Source of the DNA: Beijerinckiaceae bacterium
GTDB taxonomy: Bacteria > Pseudomonadota > Alphaproteobacteria > Rhizobiales > Beijerinckiaceae
Length of the DNA: 64,000 bases
Direction: 5' to 3'
Assembly (NCBI GenBank): GCA_027531565.1
Contig: JAPZSB010000002.1
Location: forward strand, 124,001-188,000
The translations under genes and the position numbers were made by a program. Positions within the stretch are counted from its first letter, which is position 1; every line of letters begins with the position of its first letter. This document shows positions 37,462 through 50,011 of this stretch, piece by piece. The notes below the pieces were generated by a model. It did not search any database. It saw only the letters and a list, made by a program, of their open reading frames with translations, and had not been told where the DNA came from.

Positions 37462-37537
37462 GCCGCAATAGCTCAGTTGGTAGAGCACGTCATTCGTAAT
37501 GATGGGGTCGGGGGTTCGATTCCCTCTTGCGGCACCA
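37462..37537 (+). tRNA. tRNA-Thr (anticodon CGT)
   Basis: A complete 76-base cloverleaf. The acceptor stem GCCGCAA pairs with TTGCGGC; the D arm is GCTC/GAGC; the anticodon stem CGTCA/TGATG encloses the loop TTCGTAA with anticodon CGT at 37495-37497; and the T arm is GGGGG-TTCGATT-CCCTC. ACCA is encoded at the 3' end. It reads ACG threonine codons. Its last 18 bases (37520-37537) are the attachment core of the following island and are repeated at 49550 with one base missing, so integration leaves this tRNA intact. Confidence 0.97.
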
Positions 37538-37646
37538 CTTTCCCCTCCACAGGCGTCCACCTTCGTCCGTAAGCGTCTGAAAAATCAAGATAAATCGACG
37601 GTTATGTGTCCGCTGACGTCCCGCGACGTCCGCTTTCGTGCGCTTG
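37520..37646 (+). repeat. Left direct repeat (attL and flank)
   Basis: A 127-base segment starting in the tRNA 3' end and running into the integrase leader recurs at 49550-49675 with about ten differences. The first 18 bases are tRNA sequence and form the recombination core. The remaining 109 bases include TCTGAAAAATCAAGATAAAT and a cluster of GACGTCC-like motifs that could be integrase arm sites. Confidence 0.9.
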
Positions 37647-37648
37647 AA

Positions 37649-37714
37649 GCCAACAGATTTGTTGGCCATTCTGTTGGCCTTGAAGCGAAGCCAACAGATC
37701 CGAGGCCAACAGAT
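37649..37714. repeat. Inverted and direct GCCAACAGAT repeats in the integrase leader
   Basis: GCCAACAGAT occurs at 37649-37658, 37690-37699 and 37705-37714. The inverse, TCTGTTGGC, is at 37670-37678, and a partial TGTTGGCC is at 37660-37667. The last copy overlaps the integrase start codon (ATG at 37713). The set can form alternative hairpins that would hide the start, or serve as binding sites for integrase or a regulator. Confidence 0.75.
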
Positions 37715-38945
37715 GCCGCTGACAGACACCGCGATTCGGAATGCAAAGCCCGGCGAAAAGATCATCAAACTGTCGGATGGTGGCGGTTTGCAGCTTTGGG
37801 TGATGCCGAACGGGTCAAAACTCTGGAACCTCGCTTACCGTGATTTGCAGCGGAAACAGCGCAAGCTCTCATTCGGGATCTATCCCGGTGTGGGCCTTGC
37901 CGATGCCCGCAAGAAGCGCGACGAGGCCAAGGCGCTGTTGGCCTCGGGTGTTGACCCAAGCCAACAGAAGCGCATCGACAAGCTCACCAAGGCCATCAGC
38001 ATCGCGACCACCTTCCGGGCCGTGGCGGAGGAATATCTCGACAAGCAGAAGCGCGAGGGCCGCGCAGAGGCAACGGTTGCGAAAAACCGCTATCTGCTGG
38101 AGCAGGCTTATCCGGGAATTGGGGAACGTCCGATCTCTGAAATTCAGCCGGCGGAGATTCTGGCCATTCTAAAGAGCCTCGAAAGGCGCGGCATCCTTCA
38201 TGCCGCAAAGCGCGTTCGAGGCATTATTGGCGCTGTGTTTCGTCACGCGGTTACACATCAGAAAGCAGATTCTGATCCCAGCGGATTTCTGAAGGGCGCC
38301 ATTGTCGCGCCCAAGGTCAAGCATCGCGCGGCCATCCTTGATCCCTTGGCGCTAGGGGCCTTTATCCGGGCGGTTGAGGAATTCGACGGGCAGCTCACCA
38401 CCAAGGCCGCGCTGCGCCTGCTGCCTCTCGTGTTCACGAGGCCCGGCGAATTGCGCATGGCCGAATGGCGCGAATTCGATCTCGCCAACGCCTTGTGGGT
38501 TATCCCCGCTGCCCGCACCAAGATGCGCCGTGACCATGAGGTGCCCCTCGCGCGGCAGGCCGTAGCCATCCTGACCGAATTGCACACCCTCACCGGGCGG
38601 GGCCGGTTGGTCTTTCCGGGCCTTCGCACGGTGGAACGCCCAATCAGCGAAAACACCATGAACGCTTCGATGCGCCGCATGGGCTACAGCAACGACGACG
38701 TGACCGCCCACGGTTTCCGTGCCACCGCATCAACCTTGCTGAACCAATCTGGCAAATTCTCGCCCGATGCCATCGAACGCGCCTTGGCGCACCAAGACCC
38801 CGATGCCGTCCGCCGGGCCTACAATCGGGGGGCTTACTGGCAAGAGCGCGTGGATATGGCGCAATGGTGGGCGGATTATCTGGATATATTGCGGAAGGGC
38901 GGGGAGGTTATTCCCTTCGCATCCCCTCAACAGGGTAGCCGCTAA
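37713..38945 (+). CDS. int: Tyrosine-type integrase (DUF4102 arm-binding, P4-like family)
   Basis: This 410-residue integrase should insert and excise the island at tRNA-Thr. The N-terminal arm-binding domain (about 1-85) has the family opening LTDTAIRNAKPGEK, and SAM-like core-binding follows (about 100-190). The catalytic domain shows Arg243 (TRPGEL), Lys270, His333-Gly-Phe-Arg336, His360 (LAHQDPDAVRRAY) and the nucleophile Tyr370, so all active-site positions are filled. The ATG at 37713 starts at the usual family N-terminus; a 25-residue extension would be translated through the leader repeats. The gene starts 176 bases after the tRNA and reads away from it. Confidence 0.95.
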   Translation: MPLTDTAIRNAKPGEKIIKLSDGGGLQLWVMPNGSKLWNLAYRDLQRKQRKLSFGIYPGVGLADARKKRDEAKALLASGVDPSQQKRIDKLTKAISIATTFRAVAEEYLDKQKREGRAEATVAKNRYLLEQAYPGIGERPISEIQPAEILAILKSLERRGILHAAKRVRGIIGAVFRHAVTHQKADSDPSGFLKGAIVAPKVKHRAAILDPLALGAFIRAVEEFDGQLTTKAALRLLPLVFTRPGELRMAEWREFDLANALWVIPAARTKMRRDHEVPLARQAVAILTELHTLTGRGRLVFPGLRTVERPISENTMNASMRRMGYSNDDVTAHGFRATASTLLNQSGKFSPDAIERALAHQDPDAVRRAYNRGAYWQERVDMAQWWADYLDILRKGGEVIPFASPQQGSR

Positions 38946-38967
38946 GCAATAGAAAATGTCGGTGAAA

Positions 38968-38995
38968 AGCAGCCTGAGTTCGGGCTGCTGCTTTG
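38968..38995 (+). terminator. Probable terminator after the integrase
   Basis: AGCAGCC (38968-38974) pairs with GGCTGCT (38983-38989) across an eight-base loop and is followed by GCTTTG. The stem is good and the T-run short. It lies 23 bases past the integrase stop. Confidence 0.55.
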
Positions 38996-39047
38996 ATTGT
39001 CATGAATTGGCAGGCAACATCCGCGCAGGATGAACAGGAACCCTGTC

Positions 39048-39983
39048 ATGGCAATCACGTCATATCCTTGGAAAGACGATCCGATTGAATTTGTCATGCG
39101 CGTCAAGTTCCCGTTTGAGCGGGCTTACCGAGCGTCGTCGATTAACGTGAGATTGCCAGAACGGGCGCAGCACGACAGAGACTATCTCAAACGAGCATCC
39201 GACTACCGGCAGCAACTTGGTGCAATGCCTCGTGAAGAATTGCTGGCAATGGCTCAGGCGCTGGCCTTGGAGGAGGCACATAAGGCCCAAGCGAAGCGTG
39301 ATGCAGAGGAAAGCCAGCGCTTTTTCAATGATCCCCGCGCCGCGATGGATGCGCATTATTGGTCTCGAATGTCTGCATGGACAATCGACGAGGCCACTGC
39401 CCTGTCGTTTGGAAAAGACCCTCGCTACGTGAGTTGGGACAAGCTCAAAAGCCTTGTGCAGGTGTCACTGTTCGCGAAGGCCTATCGAGAGCAACAGGAG
39501 TTGTTCAATCGGGCGCGTCTTGCAGGCCAGCTTTGGGAATCAACCCTGCCGGGAATTTTCTTGGCTTGGGCAGAGCGAATGAAGGTTGAAATGCCCGCCG
39601 ATCTCGTCGTGGCAGTCAAGGATCTTGGAATTCAGATTGCGGACTGGAAATCGCTGCATGACCGCTTGCAGACGCGGGTCCAGGAATTGGAAGCGGCGCT
39701 CGCCAAGCAACCTGCCGCACCGGCTCCTTCGCCTCCAACTGCTGTCCCTTCAAAGGCCAAGGGTTTCAGTTCTTTGGAGAGGAACAGCCTGCTGACGTTG
39801 GTCATCGGAATGGCAACCGCTTGGTATGGCTATGATGCATCCAAGACGCGCAACTCCACAGCCAAGGAAATTTCCGACGAATTGCAGCGGGTTGGCCTTT
39901 CCCTCTCCGATGACACGATCCGGAAGTTTTTACAGGAAGCGCGCGACTTGCTGCCACCGCCTGAAACCGAACGAAAGCGCTGA
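39048..39983 (+). CDS. Unrecognised island protein with a C-terminal conserved helical domain
   Basis: A 311-residue protein I cannot assign. An N-terminal helical and charged part (about 50-110, rich in Arg, Gln, Ala and Glu) is followed by an aromatic segment YWSRMSAWTIDEATALSFGK near 115 that resembles the middle of other integrated-element proteins. A Pro/Ala linker lies near 225-240. The C-terminal domain starts LERNSLLTLVIGMATAWYGY and ends SDDTIRKFLQEARDL, which looks like a winged-helix or HTH-like domain. The ATG at 39048 has AGGAA seven bases upstream. No membrane segment or signal is seen. It may be a regulator or replication-linked protein of the island. Confidence 0.6.
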   Translation: MAITSYPWKDDPIEFVMRVKFPFERAYRASSINVRLPERAQHDRDYLKRASDYRQQLGAMPREELLAMAQALALEEAHKAQAKRDAEESQRFFNDPRAAMDAHYWSRMSAWTIDEATALSFGKDPRYVSWDKLKSLVQVSLFAKAYREQQELFNRARLAGQLWESTLPGIFLAWAERMKVEMPADLVVAVKDLGIQIADWKSLHDRLQTRVQELEAALAKQPAAPAPSPPTAVPSKAKGFSSLERNSLLTLVIGMATAWYGYDASKTRNSTAKEISDELQRVGLSLSDDTIRKFLQEARDLLPPPETERKR

Positions 39984-40018
39984 AACCGAATTCGGTTTCG
40001 GCCAAACCGAATTCGGCC
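39982..40018. repeat. Paired CCGAATTCGG palindromes
   Basis: GAAACCGAATTCGGTTTC (39982-39999) is a perfect 18-base palindrome overlapping the preceding stop codon. CCGAATTCGG recurs at 40007-40016 within a second, GGCC-flanked palindrome. The centres are 21 bases apart, two helical turns. A further half site, CTGAAACCGAA, is at 39961-39971. The position upstream of the AlpA-like gene suits an operator; a transcript hairpin is the alternative. Confidence 0.7.
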
Positions 40019-40075
40019 TCAAATCATTCCGGACGCCATAGACCTGCCCCGTCCTCAAATGCACGGAGCAGAATC

Positions 40076-40306
40076 ATGCCGGACAATCCCGAACAGCATC
40101 TCTCGCAACTGCCGATCAGCGGCTTTCTGCGGCTTCATTCCATCATCAAGCCTCATGGCCCGATCCCGGTCGGCAAATCGACATGGTGGGCGGGCGTCAA
40201 GGACGGGCGTTTCCCGAAGCCGGTCAAGCTGGGTGAGCGGATCACCGTTTGGCGCGTGGAAGATATCCGCGCCCTTGTCGCCAACGGGACCGGACAGAAT
40301 GGCTAA
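40076..40306 (+). CDS. AlpA-family DNA-binding regulator
   Basis: A 76-residue protein with the AlpA/Cox-like winged helix-turn-helix. GFLRLHSIIKPHGPIPVGKS is followed by TWWAGVKDGRFPKPVKLGER, with a final beta wing TVWRVEDIRALV. AlpA proteins of P4-like elements activate excision or integrase expression. GGAG lies about seven bases before the ATG. The palindromes just upstream could be its targets. The next gene overlaps its end by eight bases. Confidence 0.88.
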   Translation: MPDNPEQHLSQLPISGFLRLHSIIKPHGPIPVGKSTWWAGVKDGRFPKPVKLGERITVWRVEDIRALVANGTGQNG

Positions 40307-40763
40307 GCGCCTCAACTGGCGCTTGGTCAAGATCCACCGGAGCTACACGGTGGAAGAGGTGGCGCGGCTTCTTGGCGTGGCGAAGGGAAGCGTCCTGCGC
40401 TGGGTGAAGAGCGGCAACCTCCCGGCGCTGAAAGAGCAACGGCCCTTTCTGATCCTTGGGCGTGAATTGCAGGATTACCTGAAGGGCCGAAGGACGACGA
40501 AACAGACCTGCGGCCCGGCGCAATGCTACTGCTTCACCTGCCGGGCACCGCGTGACGCTGCGGAACGTATGGCCGATTTCTGGCCGCTCACCGCCAAGGT
40601 CGGCAATCTTCAGGCCCTTTGTGCGAGCTGTGGCGGGCTGATGCACAAGCGGGTGAGCTTGGCCAGACTGCCCGCCCTTCGCGCATGTCTCGACATCACA
40701 AACACGCAGGCACCGCCACGCATAGGGAAGTGCGATGCGCCCGGTCTGAATGATCACTTGTGA
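40299..40763 (+). CDS. HTH DNA-binding protein with C-terminal Cys-pair (zinc-ribbon-like) motif
   Basis: A 154-residue protein. The N-terminal MerR/excisionase-like helix-turn-helix (about 10-65) reads YTVEEVARLLGVAKGSVLRW, WVKSGNLPAL and the wing LILGRELQDYL. The second half has paired cysteines, CYCFTC near residue 75 and CASCGG near 108, spaced like a zinc ribbon. I do not recognise a named family. Its start overlaps the AlpA-like gene and its stop overlaps a GTGA ahead of the recombinase, so the three genes are probably translated together. Confidence 0.75.
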   Translation: MAKRLNWRLVKIHRSYTVEEVARLLGVAKGSVLRWVKSGNLPALKEQRPFLILGRELQDYLKGRRTTKQTCGPAQCYCFTCRAPRDAAERMADFWPLTAKVGNLQALCASCGGLMHKRVSLARLPALRACLDITNTQAPPRIGKCDAPGLNDHL

Positions 40764-40777
40764 GGGGAGAGGATTCC

Positions 40778-41887
40778 ATGCGGAAACACCATGCACAGAA
40801 TGAGCGCATCAAGCGCGAATATCTGATCTTTCTGGCCCAAGCGAAACGCCATTCGGAAAAATCGGTCGATCAGGCAGCGGCGGCTATTTCCGCCTTTGAA
40901 GCCTCCACCAGCTACCGTGATTTCCGGCTCTTCCGCATCGAACAGGCCAAGCGCTTCAAGGTGCTGTTGAGCGAGCAGATGAACCCGGCCACCGGCAAGC
41001 CTCTGGCGAAAGCCACGGCCCATGCGCGCCTGATGGCCCTGAAGGCGTTTTTCCAATGGCTGTGCCGGGAGCCGGGCTATCGGAAGATCAGCCATGGCGA
41101 TGCCGAGTATTTCAACCCCTCCGCCAATGACGGGCGGATCGCGGCGGCAGCCCGCGAGAAGCCCGCCCCCAGCCTTGAGCAGATTGCCCATGTGCTATCG
41201 GTGATGCCGCACGGAACCGATATCGAGAAGCGCAACCGGGCGCTTGTGGCGTGCGCCATCCTGACCGGTGCCCGGGATGATGCTCTCGCGTCCCTCTCGC
41301 TACGGCATATCGATTGCACAGCCCGCACTGTGTTTCAGGATGCACGTGAGGTGCGCACCAAGCGCCGCAAGACCTTCACGACTTGGTTCTTCCCGGTGGG
41401 TGACGAGGTGGAAGCGATTGTTGCGGAGTGGGTCGCGCATCTAAGGGGCCATTTGCTCTTCGGGCCGGATGACCCTCTTTTCCCGGCAACGCGGGTGGCG
41501 GTTGGTGAGAGCGGCAGCTTCGAAGCGATGGGGCTTGTCCGGCAGCACTGGAGCAACGCCACGCCGATCCGCACCATCTTCCGCGAGGCCTTCACGGCAG
41601 CCGGATTGCCCTACTTCAACCCGCACAGCTTCCGCACCACCCTCGTGCTTCTGGGCGAGAAGGTTTGCCGCAGCCCGGAGGAATTCAAGGCGTGGAGCCA
41701 GAACCTCGGGCATGAGAAGGTGCTCACCACCTTCACCAGCTACGGGAATGTTGCCAGCCACCGGCAGGCGGAGATTTTCGCGGGGATGCGGGGGAAGCTG
41801 GATAGTCACCTTGGGGATCACCCAAATGCCGATGAGCTGCGGCAAGCGATGGCCGTGATTCAAAGGGTGCTTCCTACGGTTCGTTAG
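40778..41887 (+). CDS. Second site-specific tyrosine recombinase
   Basis: A 369-residue Xer/phage-integrase-type recombinase without the DUF4102 arm domain. A SAM-like core-binding domain (about 10-100) precedes the catalytic domain. Arg166 lies in TGARDDALASL, Lys195 or Lys198 in the beta hairpin, His283-Ser-Phe-Arg286 follows, then His312 (LGHEKV) and the nucleophile Tyr322. All active-site positions are filled. The ATG at 40778 follows GAGGGGAGAGG; a GTG at 40760 overlapping the previous stop is the alternative. Its target site is unknown. It may act on the internal module rather than on the tRNA. Confidence 0.88.
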   Translation: MRKHHAQNERIKREYLIFLAQAKRHSEKSVDQAAAAISAFEASTSYRDFRLFRIEQAKRFKVLLSEQMNPATGKPLAKATAHARLMALKAFFQWLCREPGYRKISHGDAEYFNPSANDGRIAAAAREKPAPSLEQIAHVLSVMPHGTDIEKRNRALVACAILTGARDDALASLSLRHIDCTARTVFQDAREVRTKRRKTFTTWFFPVGDEVEAIVAEWVAHLRGHLLFGPDDPLFPATRVAVGESGSFEAMGLVRQHWSNATPIRTIFREAFTAAGLPYFNPHSFRTTLVLLGEKVCRSPEEFKAWSQNLGHEKVLTTFTSYGNVASHRQAEIFAGMRGKLDSHLGDHPNADELRQAMAVIQRVLPTVR

Positions 41888-42291
41888 CAAGCTCTCATTG
41901 CGCAAACGGCGAAAAGTTGCCTCTTGTTGGAAGTTTCGGGGACCCCGATCCTCAATCGGATCGGCACAAGCCGCCGCCATCCTCTCGCAGGGACAATTGC
42001 CCACGGAAAATAGAACACTAGAGAGACCCAATGATGTGTCTTTGGTCGCCCAATGACTCTTGCCGAATGCATTGGCGTTGAAATCTTGTAGCCGTTTGTC
42101 GTAGATCGATTGGCGATACACCGAACGGCGCTAGCTTAAGGATCAGCTTCCGGGATAATGCTTATCGAAGGTATCGGACGGGATTTTTGTTTGGCATGGG
42201 CGCTTCAGTTAATCCGTTCTTGTAAGCCAATGTAGCGTCCTCAAAAAGGCTTTTGCGTCGCTCCTATGAACTTCGGCATGGTGCTCGCTCA
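41888..42291. other. Intergenic region upstream of the hsd operon
   Basis: A 404-base gap with no credible gene. It must carry the promoter of the hsdR-hsdS-prrC-hsdM operon. AT-richer patches occur near 42005-42060 and 42180-42220. I saw no clear -35/-10 pair, no controller-protein gene and no obvious operator repeats. The length is notable in such compact DNA. Confidence 0.5.
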
Positions 42292-45200
42292 ATGAACACA
42301 GATGAACGCGTTCTCGAGGAAGCGCTGATCACAAAACTCCGCGACCTCAAATATGATTACCGTCCGGATATCCGGGATCGCGCCACGCTGGAACGAAACT
42401 TCCGTGAGAAGTTCGAAAGCCTGAACCGGGTCACCCTTACCGACGTCGAGTTTCAGAGGTTGACCGACGAGATTGTCACGCCAGACGTGTTCACAGCTGC
42501 CCGGACACTGCGGGAGCGCAATAGTTTCATTCGCGATGATGGCACGCCGCTCAACTACACGCTCGTCAACATCAAGGACTGGTGCAAGAACTCCTTCGAG
42601 GTGGTCAACCAGCTTCGCATCAACACGGACAACAGCCATCATCGGTATGATGTCATTCTGCTGATCAACGGCGTGCCAGTCGTTCAGATCGAACTGAAGA
42701 CCCTCGGCATAAGCCCGCGCCGTGCTATGGAGCAAATCGTCGAGTACAAGAACGATCCCGGCAACGGCTACACCAAGACAATCCTGTGCTTTCTTCAATT
42801 ATTCATCGTCAGCAATCGCGACCAGACATTCTACTTCGTAAACAACAACGCGCGCCACTTCGCCTTCAATGCCGACGAGCGCTTCCTGCCGGTCTACGAG
42901 TTCGCTGATGTAGACAACAAGAAGATTGTCCACCTCGATAGCTTCGCCGAGACCTTCCTCGTCAAGTGCACGCTCGGCCAGACAATTAGTCGCTATATGG
43001 TTCTGGTCGCAAGCGAGCAGAAGCTCCTGATGATGCGGCCCTATCAGGTCTACGCGGTGAAGGCCATCGTCGACTCCATCGCGCAAGACTGCGGCAATGG
43101 CTATATCTGGCACACCACTGGCAGCGGCAAGACGCTGACTTCCTTCAAGGCGTCAACGCTGCTGAAGGACAATCCGGACATTGAGAAGTGCCTCTTCGTC
43201 GTGGACCGCAAGGATCTCGATCGGCAGACGCGCGAGGAATTCAATAAGTTCCAGGAAGGTTGCGTCGAGGAAAACACCAACACCGCTTCGCTCGTGCGCC
43301 GTCTGCTTTCGGACGACTACGCCGACAAGGTCATCGTCTGCACGATCCAAAAGCTGGGCTTGGCACTCGACGAAAACAGCAAGCGCAACAAGCAGCAGAA
43401 AAAGGACGGCAAGAAGAGCTTCAAGGAGCAGCTCGAACCCCTGCGCGACAAGCGCATCGCCTTCATTTTCGATGAATGCCATCGCTCGCAGTTCGGCGAA
43501 AACCACAAAGCCATCAAGGAATTTTTCCCGCGCGCCCAACTCTTTGGCTTCACCGGCACGCCCATCTTCGACGAAAACGCGGCTCACCAGAAGATCGAAG
43601 ACGCGCAAGCCAGCATGAAGACGACGGAAGATCTCTTCCAGCAGCGTCTTCACACCTACACGATCACGCACGCCATCGAGGACGGGAACGTCCTCCGGTT
43701 TCACGTCGATTATTACAAACCCGAGGGCAAGAAGCCGCCGAAGCCGGGCGAGCCGCTGGCCAAGCGGGCCGTCATCGAGGCGATCCTGTCCAAGCATGAC
43801 GCGGCCACCGGTCAGCGCCGTTTCAACGCCCTGCTTGCCACGGCGTCGATCAATGACGCCATCGAGTATTATGCTCTGTTCAAGACGGTGCAGGCCGAAA
43901 AGCAGGCCGCCGATCCGAACTTCCGCCCGCTGAAAATCGCCTGCGTGTTCTCTCCGCCGGCCGACGGCGATCCCGACGTCAGGCAAATTCAGGAAGACCT
44001 GCCACAGGAGAAGGAAGACAACGCCGTCGAGCCGGAGAAGAAGAAGGAAGCCCTTAAGGCTATCCTTGAGGACTATAACGCCCAATTCGGCACCAACCAT
44101 AAGCTCGGCGAATTCGATCTCTATTATCAGGATGTCCAGAAGCGCATCAAAGACCAGCAATGGCCGGAAACCGACCTGCGCAAGGCATACCCCAACCAGC
44201 CACACCACAAGATCGACATCACGATCGTCGTCGATATGCTGCTGACCGGCTTTGACTCGAAGTTCTTGAACACTCTCTACGTCGACAAGAACCTGAAGCA
44301 TCACGGCCTGATCCAGGCCTTCTCGCGCACCAACCGCGTGCTGAACGCCACCAAGCCCTATGGCAATATTCTCGATTTCCGCCAGCAGCAGGGCGCGGTC
44401 GATGCCGCCATCGCCCTCTTTTCGGGCGAGGCCGCTGCCGCGAAGGCGCGGGAAATCTGGCTCGTCGACAAGGCCCCGGTGGTCATCCAGAAGCTGGAAA
44501 CTGCCGTCCAGAAGCTCGATGCTTTCATGAAGTCGCAGGGCCTCGACTGCGCGCCCGAAGCCGTGCCCAACCTTAAGGGCGATGCGGCCCGCGCCGCCTT
44601 CATCGAGCATTTCAAGGAAGTCCAGCGGCTCAAGACCCAGCTTGACCAATACACCGACCTGACGGACGAAAACCGCACCACCATCGAACAGGTGCTGCCG
44701 CGCGAGAACCTTCTAGGCTTCCGCGGCGCCTATCTGGAAACCGCCCAGCGCCTTCGGGCGCAGCAGGGCAAGGGTCATGACCAGGGTGACGGAAAGCCCA
44801 GTCAGGACGCCGACCAGCTTGATTTCGAGTTCGTCCTCTTCGCCTCGGCCGTCATCGACTATGACTACATCATGGGCCTGATCGCCCGTTATTCCGAGGC
44901 CACGCCCGGCAAGCAGAAGATGAGCCGCGAGGAGCTCATCGGCCTGATCCAGTCCGACGCCAAGTTCATGGACGAGCGGGAAGATATCGCAGCCTATATC
45001 AACACCCTCAAGGCGGGTGAAGGCCTCAGCGAGAAGGCCATCCGCGACGGCTACAGCCGTTTCAAGGCGGAGAAGAACGCGGCCGAGCTGACGGACATCG
45101 CGGGCAAGCACGGCCTTGCCGCCGAGGCGCTTCACGGCTTCGTCGATGGCATCCTGCAACGGATGATCTTTGATGGGGAGGCGTTGACCGACCTGATGGA

Positions 45201-45327
45201 ACCCCTTGGCCTGAACTGGAAGGCGCGACGGGTGAAGGAACTGGACCTGATGGCCGACCTGCTGCCGCTTCTGCTGAAGCGCGCCGGTGGCCGTGAAATT
45301 TCGGGGCTGAGCGCTTATGAGCAGTAA
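42292..45327 (+). CDS. hsdR: Type I restriction enzyme, R subunit
   Basis: This 1011-residue motor and nuclease subunit translocates and cleaves unmethylated DNA in the R2M2S complex. The N-terminal PD-(D/E)xK nuclease is visible as Asp120 and Glu134-x-Lys136 (IELKT). The helicase domain has Walker A TGSGKT (276-281), DECH at 394-397 and TGTPIF; the second RecA lobe has VVDMLLTGFDSKFLNTLYVDK and QAFSRTNRV. The C-terminal helical domain docks on the methylase. It is the first gene of the operon, unlike the usual final or separate position. The ATG at 42292 was preferred over an upstream in-frame start. Confidence 0.96.
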   Translation: MNTDERVLEEALITKLRDLKYDYRPDIRDRATLERNFREKFESLNRVTLTDVEFQRLTDEIVTPDVFTAARTLRERNSFIRDDGTPLNYTLVNIKDWCKNSFEVVNQLRINTDNSHHRYDVILLINGVPVVQIELKTLGISPRRAMEQIVEYKNDPGNGYTKTILCFLQLFIVSNRDQTFYFVNNNARHFAFNADERFLPVYEFADVDNKKIVHLDSFAETFLVKCTLGQTISRYMVLVASEQKLLMMRPYQVYAVKAIVDSIAQDCGNGYIWHTTGSGKTLTSFKASTLLKDNPDIEKCLFVVDRKDLDRQTREEFNKFQEGCVEENTNTASLVRRLLSDDYADKVIVCTIQKLGLALDENSKRNKQQKKDGKKSFKEQLEPLRDKRIAFIFDECHRSQFGENHKAIKEFFPRAQLFGFTGTPIFDENAAHQKIEDAQASMKTTEDLFQQRLHTYTITHAIEDGNVLRFHVDYYKPEGKKPPKPGEPLAKRAVIEAILSKHDAATGQRRFNALLATASINDAIEYYALFKTVQAEKQAADPNFRPLKIACVFSPPADGDPDVRQIQEDLPQEKEDNAVEPEKKKEALKAILEDYNAQFGTNHKLGEFDLYYQDVQKRIKDQQWPETDLRKAYPNQPHHKIDITIVVDMLLTGFDSKFLNTLYVDKNLKHHGLIQAFSRTNRVLNATKPYGNILDFRQQQGAVDAAIALFSGEAAAAKAREIWLVDKAPVVIQKLETAVQKLDAFMKSQGLDCAPEAVPNLKGDAARAAFIEHFKEVQRLKTQLDQYTDLTDENRTTIEQVLPRENLLGFRGAYLETAQRLRAQQGKGHDQGDGKPSQDADQLDFEFVLFASAVIDYDYIMGLIARYSEATPGKQKMSREELIGLIQSDAKFMDEREDIAAYINTLKAGEGLSEKAIRDGYSRFKAEKNAAELTDIAGKHGLAAEALHGFVDGILQRMIFDGEALTDLMEPLGLNWKARRVKELDLMADLLPLLLKRAGGREISGLSAYEQ

Positions 45328-46621
45328 GGGCAAAGCCATGACCGTAGCGGGCAGCGGGCCTGCCTTAGTGCCGAAGCGGCGCTTTCCCGAGTTTCAGGAC
45401 TCTCCAGCATGGGAGCCGGTAAGTTTGCGAAAAGCATCCGTTCCGGTTGATGGGCGTGTCGGCGAAAGAAAGCTCACCCCGGTCAGTATTTCGGCCGGTA
45501 TCGGATTTGTGCCCCAAGCCGAAAAATTCGGACGCGACATCTCGGGGAACCAGTATCAGCTCTACACCCTGGTTCGAGATGGCGACTTTGTATTCAACAA
45601 AGGCAATTCGCTGAAGTTTCCGCAAGGATGCATCTATCTCTTGCAAGGCTGGGGCGAGGTAGCTGCGCCTAACGTGTTTATCGCCTTCCGGCTCAAGCCC
45701 GGCTATTCGAACGGCTTCTTTCAGAATTGCTTTGAGCAAAACCAGCACGGAAAGCAACTCAAGAGGCACATTACCAGCGGTGCGCGCAGCAATGGATTGC
45801 TGAATATTAGCAAGGAGACCTTTTTCGGCGTCGAAATCCCGACACCGAGCCTGCCCGAGCAACAAAAAATCGCCGAGTGCCTGGGCTCTGCCGACGTGCT
45901 GATTGCCGCGCAGGGGCAGAAGGTGGAGGCGCTGAAGGCCCATAAGAAGGGCCTGATGCAGCAGCTTTTCCCCCAGGAAGGCGAAACCCAACCCCGCCTC
46001 CGCTTCCCCGAGTTCGAGGGGGCGGGTGATTGGGTGGAGCACCCATTTGAGGACTTTGTCGCGAGGTCCTTCTACGGGACATCAAGCTCGACTTTGCAGA
46101 CTGGCCGCTACCCAGTATTGCGAATGGGGAACATGGTTGAGGGCGAGATAGATTTTTCAAACCTAGTTTATATTGACTTGGATGATACAAGCTTTGCCTC
46201 ACTTCGGCTTGAGAACGGTGATGTTCTTTTAAACCGAACAAATAGCCCAGCGTTAGTTGGAAAGATTTCCCTCTTCCGGTCAGACAGGGAATGCATCACA
46301 GCTTCATACATCGTCACTTATCGATTGAAGAAGTCTCGGCTGAACCCTTCGTTTTGCAATGCAATTTTGAATACAGAAATGTATCAGGCAAGAATCAAGA
46401 AGCTCGCAAAGCCAAGTATCAGCCAAGCGAACATCAATCCAACCGCGTTCAAAAAAGAAGTGATGATTTCGACTCCTTCGTTGGCCGAACAACAGCGTAT
46501 CGCCGACTGCCTTACCTCTCTCGATGATCTCATCGCCGCTGAGGCCCGAAAGCTCTACACCCTCAAGACCCACAAGAAGGGGCTGATGCAGCAGCTCTTC
46601 CCCCAGCTCGGGGAGGACTGA
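45317..46621 (+). CDS. hsdS: Type I restriction-modification specificity subunit
   Basis: This 434-residue protein sets the recognition sequence. Two target-recognition domains (about 30-175 and 240-385) alternate with conserved helical regions whose repeated ends read PSLPEQQKIAECLGSAD with HKKGLMQQLFPQ, and PSLAEQQRIADCLTSLD with HKKGLMQQLFPQ. That internal duplication is typical of HsdS and gives a bipartite target. The second target domain (46060-46470) is clearly AT-richer than its surroundings, a sign of domain exchange. It overlaps hsdR by 11 bases; ATG at 45338 after AAGGGC is an alternative start. Confidence 0.94.
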   Translation: MSSKGKAMTVAGSGPALVPKRRFPEFQDSPAWEPVSLRKASVPVDGRVGERKLTPVSISAGIGFVPQAEKFGRDISGNQYQLYTLVRDGDFVFNKGNSLKFPQGCIYLLQGWGEVAAPNVFIAFRLKPGYSNGFFQNCFEQNQHGKQLKRHITSGARSNGLLNISKETFFGVEIPTPSLPEQQKIAECLGSADVLIAAQGQKVEALKAHKKGLMQQLFPQEGETQPRLRFPEFEGAGDWVEHPFEDFVARSFYGTSSSTLQTGRYPVLRMGNMVEGEIDFSNLVYIDLDDTSFASLRLENGDVLLNRTNSPALVGKISLFRSDRECITASYIVTYRLKKSRLNPSFCNAILNTEMYQARIKKLAKPSISQANINPTAFKKEVMISTPSLAEQQRIADCLTSLDDLIAAEARKLYTLKTHKKGLMQQLFPQLGED

Positions 46622-46624
46622 CCT

Positions 46625-47746
46625 GTGCCAGACGCCACCTTCGATGACCTGCCCGCGCTGGCGCAGCACCTGCGAGACGAGCTTGAGGCCAAGAGGTCCG
46701 TGCTGATCTATGCCTATAACGGCACGGGCAAGACCCGGCTTTCAACCGCCTTCAAGGACATCGGCAAGGTGGTGAATGCTGAGGGCGAGACGACTGCGCA
46801 GGACACGCTCTATTTCAACGCCTTCACCGAAGACCTGTTCTTCTGGGACAACGATCTGGCAAACGACGTTGCGCGCGTGCTGAGGATTAACAGCAATTCG
46901 CGCTTCTTCGCGGGGCTGGCCGAGTTGGAGATGGACAACCGCATCCGGCCTTTGCTGAACCGCTATGCCGATTTCGATTTCCGTATCGATACCACGGAAT
47001 GGACAGTCAGGTTCTCGCGTGTGGTGGAAACAGCCGGGACCACCACGACGGTCGACGACATCAAGATTTCACGCGGTGAGGAGAACGTCTTCATCTGGTG
47101 CTTTTTTCTCGCCATCGTCCAACTCGCTCTTGATGAGGCTGAGGCCTACAAGTGGGTGAAGTACGTCTACATCGACGACCCGATTTCCTCACTGGATGAG
47201 AGCAATGCGGTGATGGTGGCCCATCACCTTGCCCAGATGCTGAAGGACGCACCAAGCCGCATCCGGGTGGTTGTTTCGTCGCATCACGTGCTGTTCTTCA
47301 ACGTACTTTGCAATGAGATGAAGAAGCCGAGGGTGTATTTCATGACCCGGCAAAGGCAGGCAGGCGGACAGCTGTTTAGGGTCCAAGAGACGGATAGCAC
47401 GCCGTTCCTGTACCATCTGGCATCATTAGTCGAACTGCACGAAGCACGCAAATCTGGCGCGCTTTATACGCATCATTTCAATATGCTACGCCGGGTCATG
47501 GAGCAGACCGCTGCCTTCTTCGGCTACCCCAAATGGCATGACTGCATCAAGCCTGAGGCCGATGATCCAAACCAGACCATCTACAAGCGTATTATCGACC
47601 TGATGAGCCATGGCGACTATTCCTTGTATGAGCCCCGCGAGATGATGCCAGAGAACAAGGAACACTTTGGCAGGGTTTTGAAGCAGTTCATTACGCTGCA
47701 TCCCTTCAGCCCCGCGCTGTTTCCTGAGGAGGCCCCTGCCCAATGA
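46625..47746 (+). CDS. prrC: PrrC-like latent anticodon nuclease
   Basis: A 373-residue protein matching the layout of PrrC, the tRNA-Lys anticodon nuclease that a type I restriction enzyme keeps silent until phage proteins disable restriction. The NTPase part has Walker A YNGTGKT (31-37), the PrrC-typical NAFTEDLFFWDND (65-77), an ABC-like signature SRGEEN (149-154), Walker B YVYIDDPISSLD (180-191) and SSHHVLFFNVL (218-228). The nuclease part has Arg289-x3-Glu293 and, 36 residues on, His329 in LMSHGD. These correspond to PrrC Arg320, Glu324 and His356, and the shared FGYPKW lies between them. GTG start after GGGGAGGAC; ATGA overlap with hsdM. The target tRNA is not shown by sequence. Confidence 0.9.
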   Translation: MPDATFDDLPALAQHLRDELEAKRSVLIYAYNGTGKTRLSTAFKDIGKVVNAEGETTAQDTLYFNAFTEDLFFWDNDLANDVARVLRINSNSRFFAGLAELEMDNRIRPLLNRYADFDFRIDTTEWTVRFSRVVETAGTTTTVDDIKISRGEENVFIWCFFLAIVQLALDEAEAYKWVKYVYIDDPISSLDESNAVMVAHHLAQMLKDAPSRIRVVVSSHHVLFFNVLCNEMKKPRVYFMTRQRQAGGQLFRVQETDSTPFLYHLASLVELHEARKSGALYTHHFNMLRRVMEQTAAFFGYPKWHDCIKPEADDPNQTIYKRIIDLMSHGDYSLYEPREMMPENKEHFGRVLKQFITLHPFSPALFPEEAPAQ

Positions 47747-49398
47747 ACGACCACAACCAAAAACAGCTGGGCAAGACGCTTTGGAACATCGCCGACACGC
47801 TGCGCGGCGCGATGAACGCGGACGACTTCCGCGACTACATGCTGTCTTTCCTGTTCCTGCGCTACCTCTCCGACAATTACGAGGTGGCGGCGAAGAAGGA
47901 GCTCGGGCGGGACTATCCCGATCCCAACGCGATCGGCAATGGTGGGCGCTCGCCCCTGTCGGTCTGGTATACGCAGAACCCCGATGATGTCGCCGCGTTC
48001 GAGAAGCAGATGCGCCTCAAGGCGCACTACGTCATCAAGCCGGAACACCTTTGGACCAGCATCGCCTACATGGCGCGCACCCAGAACGACGAGCTTCTGA
48101 ACACTCTGCAAGCGGGTTTCAAGTACATCGAGAACGAGTCGTTCCAGAGCACATTCGGCGGCCTGTTCTCTGAGATCAATCTCGGCTCCGACAAGCTCGG
48201 GCGGACATACGCCGATCGCAACGCCAAACTCTGCGCCATCATCACCGAGATCGCCAAAGGGCTCGCCGACTTCTCCTCGGATGTGGATGCGCTTGGCGAC
48301 GCCTACGAATATCTCATCGGCCAATTCGCCGCCGGCTCCGGCAAGAAGGCCGGCGAGTTCTATACCCCGCAACAGGTGTCAGACATCCTCTCCGCTATCG
48401 TGACCCTCGACAGCCAGGAACCCGCAACCGGAAAGAAGGAAAGGCTCGCCAGCGTGCTCGACTTCGCGTGCGGTTCAGGCTCGTTGCTGCTGAACGTGCG
48501 CAAGCGCATGGGTCCGCACGGCATCGGCAGGATTTACGGGCAGGAAAAGAACATCACCACTTACAACCTTGCCCGCATGAACATGCTCTTGCACGGCGTT
48601 AAGGACACCGAGTTCGAAATCTACCACGGTGATACCCTCAACAATGACTGGGACATTCTGCGCGAGTTGAACCCCGCCAAGAAGCCCTCCTTCGATGCGA
48701 TCGTGGCCAACCCACCCTTCAGCTTGCGCTGGGATCCGACCGAGGCGATGGGCGATGATGTGCGGTTCAAGAACTACGGGCTGGCGCCAAAGTCGGCTGC
48801 GGACTTCGCCTTCCTGCTCCACGGGTTCCACTACCTGAAGGATGAGGGCGTGATGGCCATCATCCTGCCCCATGGGGTGCTGTTCAGGGGCGGGGCGGAA
48901 GAGCGCATCCGAACCAAGCTGCTGAAGGATGGGCATATCGATACGGTGATCGGCCTGCCCGCGAACCTGTTCTATTCCACCGGCATCCCGGTCTGCATCC
49001 TCGTGCTGAAGAAGTGCAAGAAGCCTGACGACGTGCTCTTCATCAACGCTGCCGAGCACTTTCTGAAGGATAAGCGTCAAAACAAATTGGGAGATGGCAA
49101 GAATGAGACGCCGGATCATATCGGCAAGATTGTCTCCACTTACCAATTCCGCACGGAAGAGGACCGCTATTCCAAGCGCGTGAGCATGGAGCGGATCGCT
49201 GAGGAAGGCTATAACCTTAACATCTCGCGCTACATCAGCACTGCGGTAGGCGAAGAGGAGATACGGCTAGAGACTGTACACCAACGACTGCTCGATATCG
49301 AAGGAGACATCCGGAAATCCACGGCGAAACACAACGGGTTCCTAAAGGAGCTTGGGCTGGATCTCTTGCCAACGGACATGGATGAGCGCGAGCATTGA
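47743..49398 (+). CDS. hsdM: Type I restriction-modification DNA methyltransferase, M subunit
   Basis: A 551-residue N6-adenine methyltransferase. The N-terminal helical HsdM domain (about 8-140, LWNIADTLRGAMNADDFRDY) is followed by the SAM site DFACGSG (240-246) and the catalytic NPPF (323-326). The C-terminal part contacts HsdS. GEFYTPQQV before motif I is typical. With HsdS it forms the protective methylase; with HsdR, the nuclease. It is the last gene of the operon and overlaps prrC by four bases, so anticodon nuclease and protective methylase are translationally coupled. Confidence 0.96.
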   Translation: MNDHNQKQLGKTLWNIADTLRGAMNADDFRDYMLSFLFLRYLSDNYEVAAKKELGRDYPDPNAIGNGGRSPLSVWYTQNPDDVAAFEKQMRLKAHYVIKPEHLWTSIAYMARTQNDELLNTLQAGFKYIENESFQSTFGGLFSEINLGSDKLGRTYADRNAKLCAIITEIAKGLADFSSDVDALGDAYEYLIGQFAAGSGKKAGEFYTPQQVSDILSAIVTLDSQEPATGKKERLASVLDFACGSGSLLLNVRKRMGPHGIGRIYGQEKNITTYNLARMNMLLHGVKDTEFEIYHGDTLNNDWDILRELNPAKKPSFDAIVANPPFSLRWDPTEAMGDDVRFKNYGLAPKSAADFAFLLHGFHYLKDEGVMAIILPHGVLFRGGAEERIRTKLLKDGHIDTVIGLPANLFYSTGIPVCILVLKKCKKPDDVLFINAAEHFLKDKRQNKLGDGKNETPDHIGKIVSTYQFRTEEDRYSKRVSMERIAEEGYNLNISRYISTAVGEEEIRLETVHQRLLDIEGDIRKSTAKHNGFLKELGLDLLPTDMDEREH

Positions 49399-50011
49399 GG
49401 CAAATTGTCCGAGGGGATTAGGGGCAATGCGCTCACCCATTGAAAGTCATCCACCCCCAGCCACAAAAATTGTTGGTCTTTTTGTTGGTCTTTTGAAAAT
49501 CCAATTAAATTTTTATATTGAAAAACAAATAGATAATCCGTTATCGCGGTTCCCTCTTGCGCACCATTTTCCCCTCCACAGACGTCCGCCTTCGTCCGTA
49601 AACGTCTGAAAAATCAAGATAAATCAGGGTCTATGTGTCCGCTGGCGTCTCGCGACGTCCGCTTTCGTGCGCTTGCATCCGCCTAAATTGTTGGGTTTCA
49701 TGTCGGGTATCGGGCAAAGCCAGACATCCCCGACCAACAGGCTGACCCGTGGATTCCGCCGCGATGCGGAACGGGCGGTGGCGGCCGCGTTCCGGTTTCC
49801 CTCGAGCTGCAAAGCGGAGGATTCCGGTTTGCCAGCAAGATAAAGGCCTTGACGCGGGAAGGCTCGATTCCGCACGCTGCGAATGCAGGGGTCGGAGCGG
49901 GAGTTCAGCCGTTGGCAGGATGCCGGCTTTCCGGGTTGTCGTCCGCGCGCCGGACCGGTGTCCGACGGGGCCGCCCTGTCCGGGGACCGAATTCAGAAGG
50001 AGAGTTTCGGG
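49399..50011. other. Island right junction and gene-free flank
   Basis: This 613-base stretch has no intact gene. It holds AT-rich island-end sequence (49440-49545), the right attachment copy and 110 bases of repeat (49550-49675). A 60-base stretch follows with TTGTTGG ... CCAACAG inverted motifs like those in the integrase leader (about 49687-49741). Then comes degenerate sequence whose translation from 49741 (LTRGFRRDAERA) faintly recalls the integrase opening LTDTAIRNAKPG. The last 20 bases hold the AGAAGGAGAG ribosome binding site of the next gene. Confidence 0.6.
49550..49675 (+). repeat. Right direct repeat (attR and flank)
   Basis: A copy of 37520-37646. The tRNA-derived core reads TTCCCTCTTGCGCACCA, one G fewer than in the tRNA, and the following 109 bases match the integrase leader with about ten changes. 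It is not a working tRNA: nothing upstream of the T-stem 3' half is repeated. Confidence 0.9.

What the first reader, a model, noticed from the sequence alone, without database searches (positions are those of the whole stretch)
46625..47746. PrrC-type anticodon nuclease inside an alphaproteobacterial type I R-M operon
The product between hsdS and hsdM has PrrC's distinctive NTPase segments (GTGKT at 33-37, NAFTEDLFFWDND, SRGEEN, IDDPISSLD) and the nuclease triad pattern Arg289-x3-Glu293 ... His329 around a shared FGYPKW. In E. coli, PrrC is silenced by EcoprrI and cleaves tRNA-Lys when phage T4 Stp disables restriction. Finding an intact-looking relative here, on a tRNA-borne island, suggests a two-tier phage defence. 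The E-to-H spacing (36) is slightly longer than in PrrC (32), so the substrate tRNA may differ.
Basis: partly seen in the sequence, partly recalled or inferred. Interest (0 to 1): 0.88.

Follow-up and report, generated by a model that had tools for sequence, protein, structure and literature searches.

The report
Swapped-in PrrC tRNA-cutting restriction guard
A bacterial restriction operon carries an intact gene of the known PrrC family, a tRNA-cutting second line of defence against phages, and comparison with relatives suggests that this gene was swapped in while most of the operon stayed nearly the same.

Summary
Window 46625-47746 encodes an intact 373-aa PrrC-family protein between hsdS and hsdM. 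Arg289, Glu293 and His329 align with Arg320, Glu324 and His356 of a 396-aa E. coli relative and are invariant in 103 of 103 distinct members aligned. The Glu-His spacing of 36 is the usual one for this gene order (76 of 92), so it gives no reason to expect another tRNA. A system of the same order, PrrC170, targets tRNA-Lys and blocks phages (PMC11555353, passages). Added here: (1) PrrC splits into two deep clades matching two operon orders. (2) The window operon is a mosaic: its HsdM is 91-97% identical, over the parts held, to that of five operons, one in the same genus, whose PrrC is only 47-51% identical. (3) The genome also encodes Pnkp-Hen1 RNA repair; the Pnkp ligase was found in 1 of 59 PrrC genomes checked, this one, so no association is shown. 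The kind is known; module exchange and the repair neighbour add interest. Cleavage, silencing and activation are inferred.

The parts
46625..47746 (+). prrC, 373 aa: ABC-ATPase head and C-terminal HEPN-type nuclease part (R289, E293, R322, H329)
42292..45327 (+). hsdR; ATG 42292 preferred (the same-genus copy starts at the aligned ATG); the longest ORF starts TTG 42253
45317..46621 (+). hsdS, 434 aa, with two repeat-related halves; overlaps the end of hsdR
47743..49398 (+). hsdM, 551 aa; its start overlaps the prrC stop
46600..47725 (.). segment with exchanged ancestry (prrC, perhaps with the second recognition region of hsdS upstream); edges approximate
37462..37537 (+). tRNA-Thr (CGT), integration site
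37638..38945 (+). tyrosine integrase next to the tRNA
37517..37665 (+). direct repeat, left copy (tRNA 3' end and following DNA)
49547..49694 (+). direct repeat, right copy; island end about 150 nt after hsdM
40760..41887 (+). second integrase-like ORF on the island

Best explanation
The gene encodes a latent anticodon nuclease of the PrrC family, made from the same operon as a type I restriction-modification enzyme. Inferred working: the enzyme complex holds PrrC silent; when a phage product disables restriction, the ABC-ATPase head lets the C-terminal HEPN-type site (Arg289, Glu293, Arg322, His329) cut the anticodon loop of tRNA-Lys, and translation stops. Shown here from sequence: family, intact motifs, operon linkage, purifying selection on prrC, the island. 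Also shown by sequence comparison: the hsdR/hsdM backbone and the prrC have different closest relatives, so the prrC segment was exchanged. Inferred from characterised relatives: silencing, activation, tRNA-Lys as substrate.
For: PADLOC PrrC 452.9 bits. Triad invariant in 103 of 103, R322 in 102 of 103. Uninterrupted head of 373 aa, within the 341-416 aa given for PrrC in PMC2610378 (section 5). hsdS is the nearest detected gene upstream in 106 of 109 loci, window included. Same gene order as PrrC170, which targets tRNA-Lys and blocks T1 and T7 (PMC11555353, passages); the K. quasipneumoniae relative L034 is 59-62% identical to the window. Host tRNA-Lys(UUU) is present with loop CTTTTAA, which I recall to be the E. 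coli loop. dN/dS 0.10 for prrC against L041 (synonymous changes near saturation). Modelled with mean pLDDT 84.1.
Against: No functional evidence in this organism. The residue that contacts the wobble base in E. coli PrrC, Asp287 (PMC3014915, passages), falls in a stretch whose register is uncertain: the window has an Asp (257) next to the aligned column, which itself holds Ser. The Hsd proteins are only 35-38% identical to those of the E. coli-order system, so its trigger need not be Stp. No solved PrrC was found by sequence or fold. A backbone with 74% identical HsdM exists without prrC (G602).
Confidence: 0.85

Rival explanations
1. An anticodon nuclease of the same make and control that cuts a tRNA other than tRNA-Lys.
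For: Asp287 is not clearly conserved. Only two members are known to me to have a tested substrate, and the window is 34-36% (L035) and about 60% (L034) identical to proteins of those kinds.
Against: The two tested kinds, from both deep clades, target tRNA-Lys (PMC3014915 and PMC11555353, passages). The spacing argument fails.
Confidence: 0.1
2. The protein is a HEPN RNase with another RNA target, or is not held silent by the Hsd enzyme, so that the operon linkage only reflects shared mobility.
For: HEPN domains include RNases with broad mRNA targets (PMC3710099, passages). prrC is exchanged between backbones and can be missing from one (G602).
Against: Linkage to hsdS holds in 106 of 109 loci across many phyla, and the protein matches PrrC over its whole length.
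Confidence: 0.05
3. As to the mosaic only: prrC was not swapped but simply evolves much faster than hsdR and hsdM.
For: In 64 loci with all three genes, PrrC identity follows HsdM less closely than HsdR identity does (r 0.60 against 0.85), which fast evolution alone could also give.
Against: The window's PrrC is 81% identical to L004/L040 and 75% to L041 but 47-51% to operons with 91-97% identical HsdM. The PrrC tree rejects window plus the five as one clade (p-AU 2.3e-127) and the HsdM tree rejects the five without the window (p-AU 0.0047) (the groups were named after identities were seen). Identity rises sharply at the prrC/hsdM junction.
Confidence: 0.05

Closest known systems
PrrC170 of Klebsiella quasipneumoniae (PMC11555353, passages)
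   Same: Same gene order HsdR-HsdS-PrrC-HsdM; ABC-ATPase PrrC about 35% identical to E. coli PrrC. The plasmid relative L034, probably of this kind, is about 60% identical to the window and has spacing 36.
   Different: L034 has TrlF-like and SLFN_AlbA_2 genes between hsdR and hsdS; the window has none. PrrC170's own sequence was not seen by me, so identity with L034 is inferred.
E. coli PrrC with EcoprrI (PMC3014915, passages; relative L035 used here)
   Same: Triad R320/E324/H356, head motifs, place directly after hsdS, type I R-M operon.
   Different: Order hsdM-hsdS-prrC-hsdR, a separate deep clade; 34-36% identity; spacing 32.
RloC (PMC2610378, passages and section 5)
   Same: ABC head and Arg-x3-Glu ... 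His nuclease motif.
   Different: RloC is 658-897 aa with a zinc-hook coiled-coil insert and is mostly not linked to R-M; the window protein has 373 aa and no such insert.
PARIS (PMC9122126, passage; PMC12409363, listing only)
   Same: A second-line guard that answers anti-restriction and cuts tRNA.
   Different: Toprim nuclease effector; senses the T7 Ocr protein; not described there as part of an hsd operon.

Membership tests
PrrC anticodon nuclease | Full-length match to a PrrC profile | tested here: met
   PADLOC PDLC02360, 452.9 bits, residues 6-362
PrrC anticodon nuclease | Catalytic triad Arg-Glu-His at R320/E324/H356 | tested here: met
   R289/E293/H329; invariant in 103 of 103
PrrC anticodon nuclease | Short uninterrupted ABC head (341-416 aa in all), no zinc hook | tested here: met
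   373 aa, no long insert in the alignment (range from PMC2610378 section 5)
PrrC anticodon nuclease | Segment NAFTEDLFxWDND after the P-loop | tested here: met
   65-77; N76 and W74 in 103 of 103, D77 in 101 of 103
PrrC anticodon nuclease | Gene embedded in a type I R-M operon next to hsdS | tested here: met
PrrC anticodon nuclease | Counterpart of Asp287 (wobble-base contact) | tested here: inconclusive
   Asp257 lies beside the aligned column; register uncertain
PrrC anticodon nuclease | Cleaves tRNA-Lys in the anticodon loop | not testable with these tools
   needs an assay
PrrC anticodon nuclease | Silenced by the linked Hsd enzyme and released by anti-restriction | not testable with these tools
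   needs an assay
E. coli EcoprrI locus type | Order hsdM-hsdS-prrC-hsdR | tested here: not met
   order is hsdR-hsdS-prrC-hsdM; other clade
PrrC170 locus type | Order hsdR-hsdS-prrC-hsdM | tested here: met
   order of PrrC170 from PMC11555353 passages
RloC | Zinc-hook coiled-coil insert, 658-897 aa | tested here: not met
   373 aa

The most novel reading that the evidence does not exclude
PrrC is an exchangeable guard module: near-identical restriction backbones trade very different anticodon nucleases, perhaps along with a DNA-recognition part. In this bacterium the guard also coexists with a chromosomal Pnkp-Hen1 repair system that could reseal and 2'-O-methylate the self-inflicted cut, turning a suicide switch into a reversible arrest with tRNA that resists recutting, so that PrrC damage would be a natural substrate of Pnkp-Hen1. 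The exchange alone has strong sequence support (I would put it at about 0.85); the repair link is the bold part and has only co-residence behind it.
Probability: 0.15. Interest if true: 0.75.

Novelty: new member of a known kind. Interest (0 to 1): 0.45.

Why it matters
PrrC is the classic guard of restriction, known mainly from the E. coli order. The branch found here (R-S-prrC-M) turned up in many phyla, and PrrC170 is its only tested relative that I know of. Exchange of whole nucleases on a backbone that is about 93% identical means that the surfaces which keep the nuclease silent must be conserved or forgiving, and natural alleles now exist to test that. The in vivo substrates of Pnkp-Hen1 are called unknown in PMC4411300 (passages), and a host that carries both a tRNA cutter and this repair complex is a natural test bed.

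Tried and rejected
Phage records: no match in 50,697. Solved structures: no PrrC by sequence. Fold search: the 50 rows shown are SMC, Rad50, PtuA, retron-IA and transporter ATPases and the like, with TM-scores to the query of at most 0.36, so the nuclease part was not confirmed by fold.

Empty integration site: all 17 genus genomes match some of the tRNA flank, five besides the window's own over most of the query (G570, G571, G572, G569, G287). G570 and G571 have about 19 and 40 kb between the same flanks. G572 runs into a contig end. No clean empty site was found.

Association of PrrC with Pnkp: not found. Of 297 genomes of the order, 7 have a PrrC hit below 1e-120 (23 more are weak) and 14 have the Pnkp ligase over the cut-off; only the window's genome has both, against 0.33 expected by chance. 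None of 52 further PrrC genomes has it (49 of the 79 genome-contig loci other than L040, plus G572, G314, G811). Co-residence here may be chance. An earlier query with a neighbour of L035 annotated 3'-phosphatase found nothing, without a control.

Promoter and terminator scan: no more sites than in shuffles. Spacing as a sign of another tRNA: rejected.

Full report
OBSERVATION. The ORF at 46625-47746 (+) is 373 aa with a GTG start 3 nt after the hsdS stop, and its stop overlaps the hsdM start at 47743. PADLOC PrrC matches residues 6-362 with 452.9 bits, E=2e-136. Pfam gives AAA_13. NCBIfam gives no family at E 0.001 or better.

TRIAD. L035 is a 396-aa PrrC from an E. coli plasmid with phage genes; it has R320, E324 and H356 at exactly those numbers, and the window's R289, E293 and H329 align with them. 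I then aligned 103 distinct PrrC proteins, the window included (109 extracted; 5 duplicates and 1 fragment dropped; all from loci fetched as relatives of the window or of L035). R289, E293, H329, H284, F285, F298, S149, D184 and D185 do not vary; R322 is conserved in 102 of 103. R322-x6-H329 fits the Rx4-6H motif that PMC3710099 (passages) gives for HEPN RNases, among which it counts PrrC. In the AlphaFold2 model (33 sequences, mean pLDDT 84.1, pTM 0.72) R289 and E293 lie on one helix (283-299), R322 on another (318-327) and H329 just after it.

SPACING. The Glu-His distance is 36 in 76 of 92 members with the order R-S-prrC-M (the rest 33-37) and 32-40 in the 9 with the order M-S-prrC-R; 2 of the 103 are cut by contig ends and were not assigned. 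The Klebsiella quasipneumoniae relative L034 has 36. PMC11555353 (passages) reports that PrrC170 of K. quasipneumoniae, cloned as HsdR-HsdS-PrrC-HsdM and 35% identical to EcoPrrC, defends against T1 and T7, arrests growth and targets tRNA-Lys by tRNA sequencing. L034 is 35% identical to L035. That L034 is of PrrC170's kind is likely, not proven: I did not see the PrrC170 sequence. The spacing therefore does not point to another tRNA.

OPERON. HsdR, HsdS and HsdM are open and match their families, with motifs IELK, TGSGKT, DECH (HsdR) and NPPF, FACGSG (HsdM). Over 109 loci including the window (duplicates counted) the nearest detected gene upstream of prrC is hsdS in 106; downstream it is hsdM in 96, hsdR in 9, and another or none in 4 (only six kinds of gene were looked for, and gaps of up to about 4 kb occur). 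In a tree of 52 rows the two orders are the two sides of one branch with SH-aLRT 100 (43 against 9 rows, one change; quick tree, no bootstrap). Thus prrC keeps its place after hsdS while the order around it differs.

MOSAIC. Over the parts held, the window's HsdM is 91% (L006), 97% (L008), 93% (L039, Tistrella mobilis plasmid), 97% (L133) and 95% (L185, same genus) identical, whereas PrrC is 47, 49, 48, 51 and 49% identical. Complete HsdM gives 92-93% for three of them (L039, G314 for L133, G572 for L185). HsdR is 93% identical to L039 and 94.6% to the same-genus copy. Those five PrrC proteins are 82-90% identical to one another. The window's PrrC is instead 81% identical to L004/L040 and 75% to Rhodanobacter L041. 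DNA identity over hsdR is 85.8% to L039 and 87.0% to the same-genus copy. In 100-nt bins it falls in the recognition regions of hsdS, is 47-73% through prrC from 46.6 to 47.7 kb, and is back at mostly 82-95% in hsdM (one bin of L006 at 57%, and lower values near the hsdM end). Against L040 the prrC bins are 67-79% from 46.7 kb and are not set off so sharply from hsdR (69-80% at its end) and hsdM (58-88%). The HsdM tree places the window inside the five (holding the five apart from it: p-AU 0.0047); the PrrC tree rejects window plus five as a clade (p-AU 2.3e-127). The groups were named after identities were seen, which weakens the first value more than the second. As the window nests among the five by HsdM, it is the likelier recipient. 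On 64 loci with all three genes the identity matrices correlate 0.85 (HsdR-HsdM), 0.62 (HsdR-PrrC) and 0.60 (HsdM-PrrC), each above all 999 shuffles: PrrC partly travels with the backbone and partly does not. Whether prrC moved alone or with the second half of hsdS cannot be told, since recognition regions differ anyway.

OPTIONAL. Of 385 genomes of the class, 8 have an HsdM match at E 1e-100 or better. Four of the 8 have prrC next to hsdM (the window's, G314, G811, G590). G602 (74% identical) has hsdS 137 nt from hsdM and no prrC. G629 shows none in a partial stretch. G790 has the order M-S and its stretch ends soon after hsdS, and G885 is cut by a contig end, so these two cannot be told.

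ISLAND. tRNA-Thr(CGT), the integrase and the direct repeat bound about 12 kb. In G570 and G571 the same flanks lie about 19 and 40 kb apart. In G572, of the same genus, the operon with the other prrC ends about 1.7 kb before a segment like the window's repeat followed by a related integrase; no tRNA gene was found in that 20-kb stretch. PrrC occurs in 2 of 17 genomes of the genus.

HOST. Of 41 tRNA hits, 30 were given as loci and read: tRNA-Lys genes UUU and CUU are among them, the UUU gene with loop CTTTTAA. The genome also encodes Pnkp (kinase, phosphatase and ligase domains, 897-aa ORF) with Hen1 overlapping it and an RtcB-like gene near. PMC4411300 (passages) says that Pnkp-Hen1 repairs ribotoxin-cut RNA, that Hen1 methylates the 2'-OH so that repaired RNA resists recutting, and that in vivo substrates are unknown. 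Association with PrrC was tested and not found: 1 of 59 PrrC genomes has the ligase (7 of the order; 52 more).

PRINT. Seven papers were seen in passages: PMC2610378 (also its section 5), PMC3710099, PMC11555353, PMC3014915, PMC4411300, PMC12707154, PMC9122126. The listings (titles and abstract starts) show no report of prrC exchange on one R-M backbone or of the split by operon order. Most subscription papers are not held, among them three PrrC papers sought, so this is weak evidence of novelty.

VERDICT. A complete, ordinary-looking member of a known guard system, in the gene order of PrrC170, with a clear sign of module exchange and an unusual repair system in the same genome.

Noticed in passing
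G000 contig C3 162299-163429 and around (L204 4282-8228, minus strand): The window's genome carries a Pnkp-Hen1 RNA repair pair with an RtcB-like gene near; Pnkp ligase is over the cut-off in 14 of 297 genomes of the order.
   Followed up: partly
L041 6952-7950; L063 9179-10183; L052 9146-10345; L071 7123-7989: Slots beside prrC in related operons hold other genes: RhuM family in L041 and L063, a YhcG/DUF1016 nuclease in L052, a Bro-N protein in L071.
   Followed up: partly
L034 2961-6745; L036 2964-6751: Klebsiella plasmid operons have a TrlF-like ATPase and an SLFN_AlbA_2 protein between hsdR and hsdS.
   Followed up: partly
L035 4373-12231: An E. coli plasmid with phage genes and a Phd/Doc pair (P1-like by recall) carries hsdM-hsdS-prrC-hsdR.
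   Followed up: no
L092 343-9876: Two copies in tandem: S-prrC-M followed by R-S-prrC-M in a Rhodocyclaceae genome assembled from a metagenome.
   Followed up: no
window 37462-49694; G570 C13 178-197 kb; G571 C10 459-501 kb: The tRNA-Thr(CGT) site is a variable integration spot in this genus: 12, 19 and 40 kb between the same flanks.
   Followed up: partly
window 39030-39983: A 317-aa ORF on the island has no Pfam family at E 0.001 or better.
   Followed up: no
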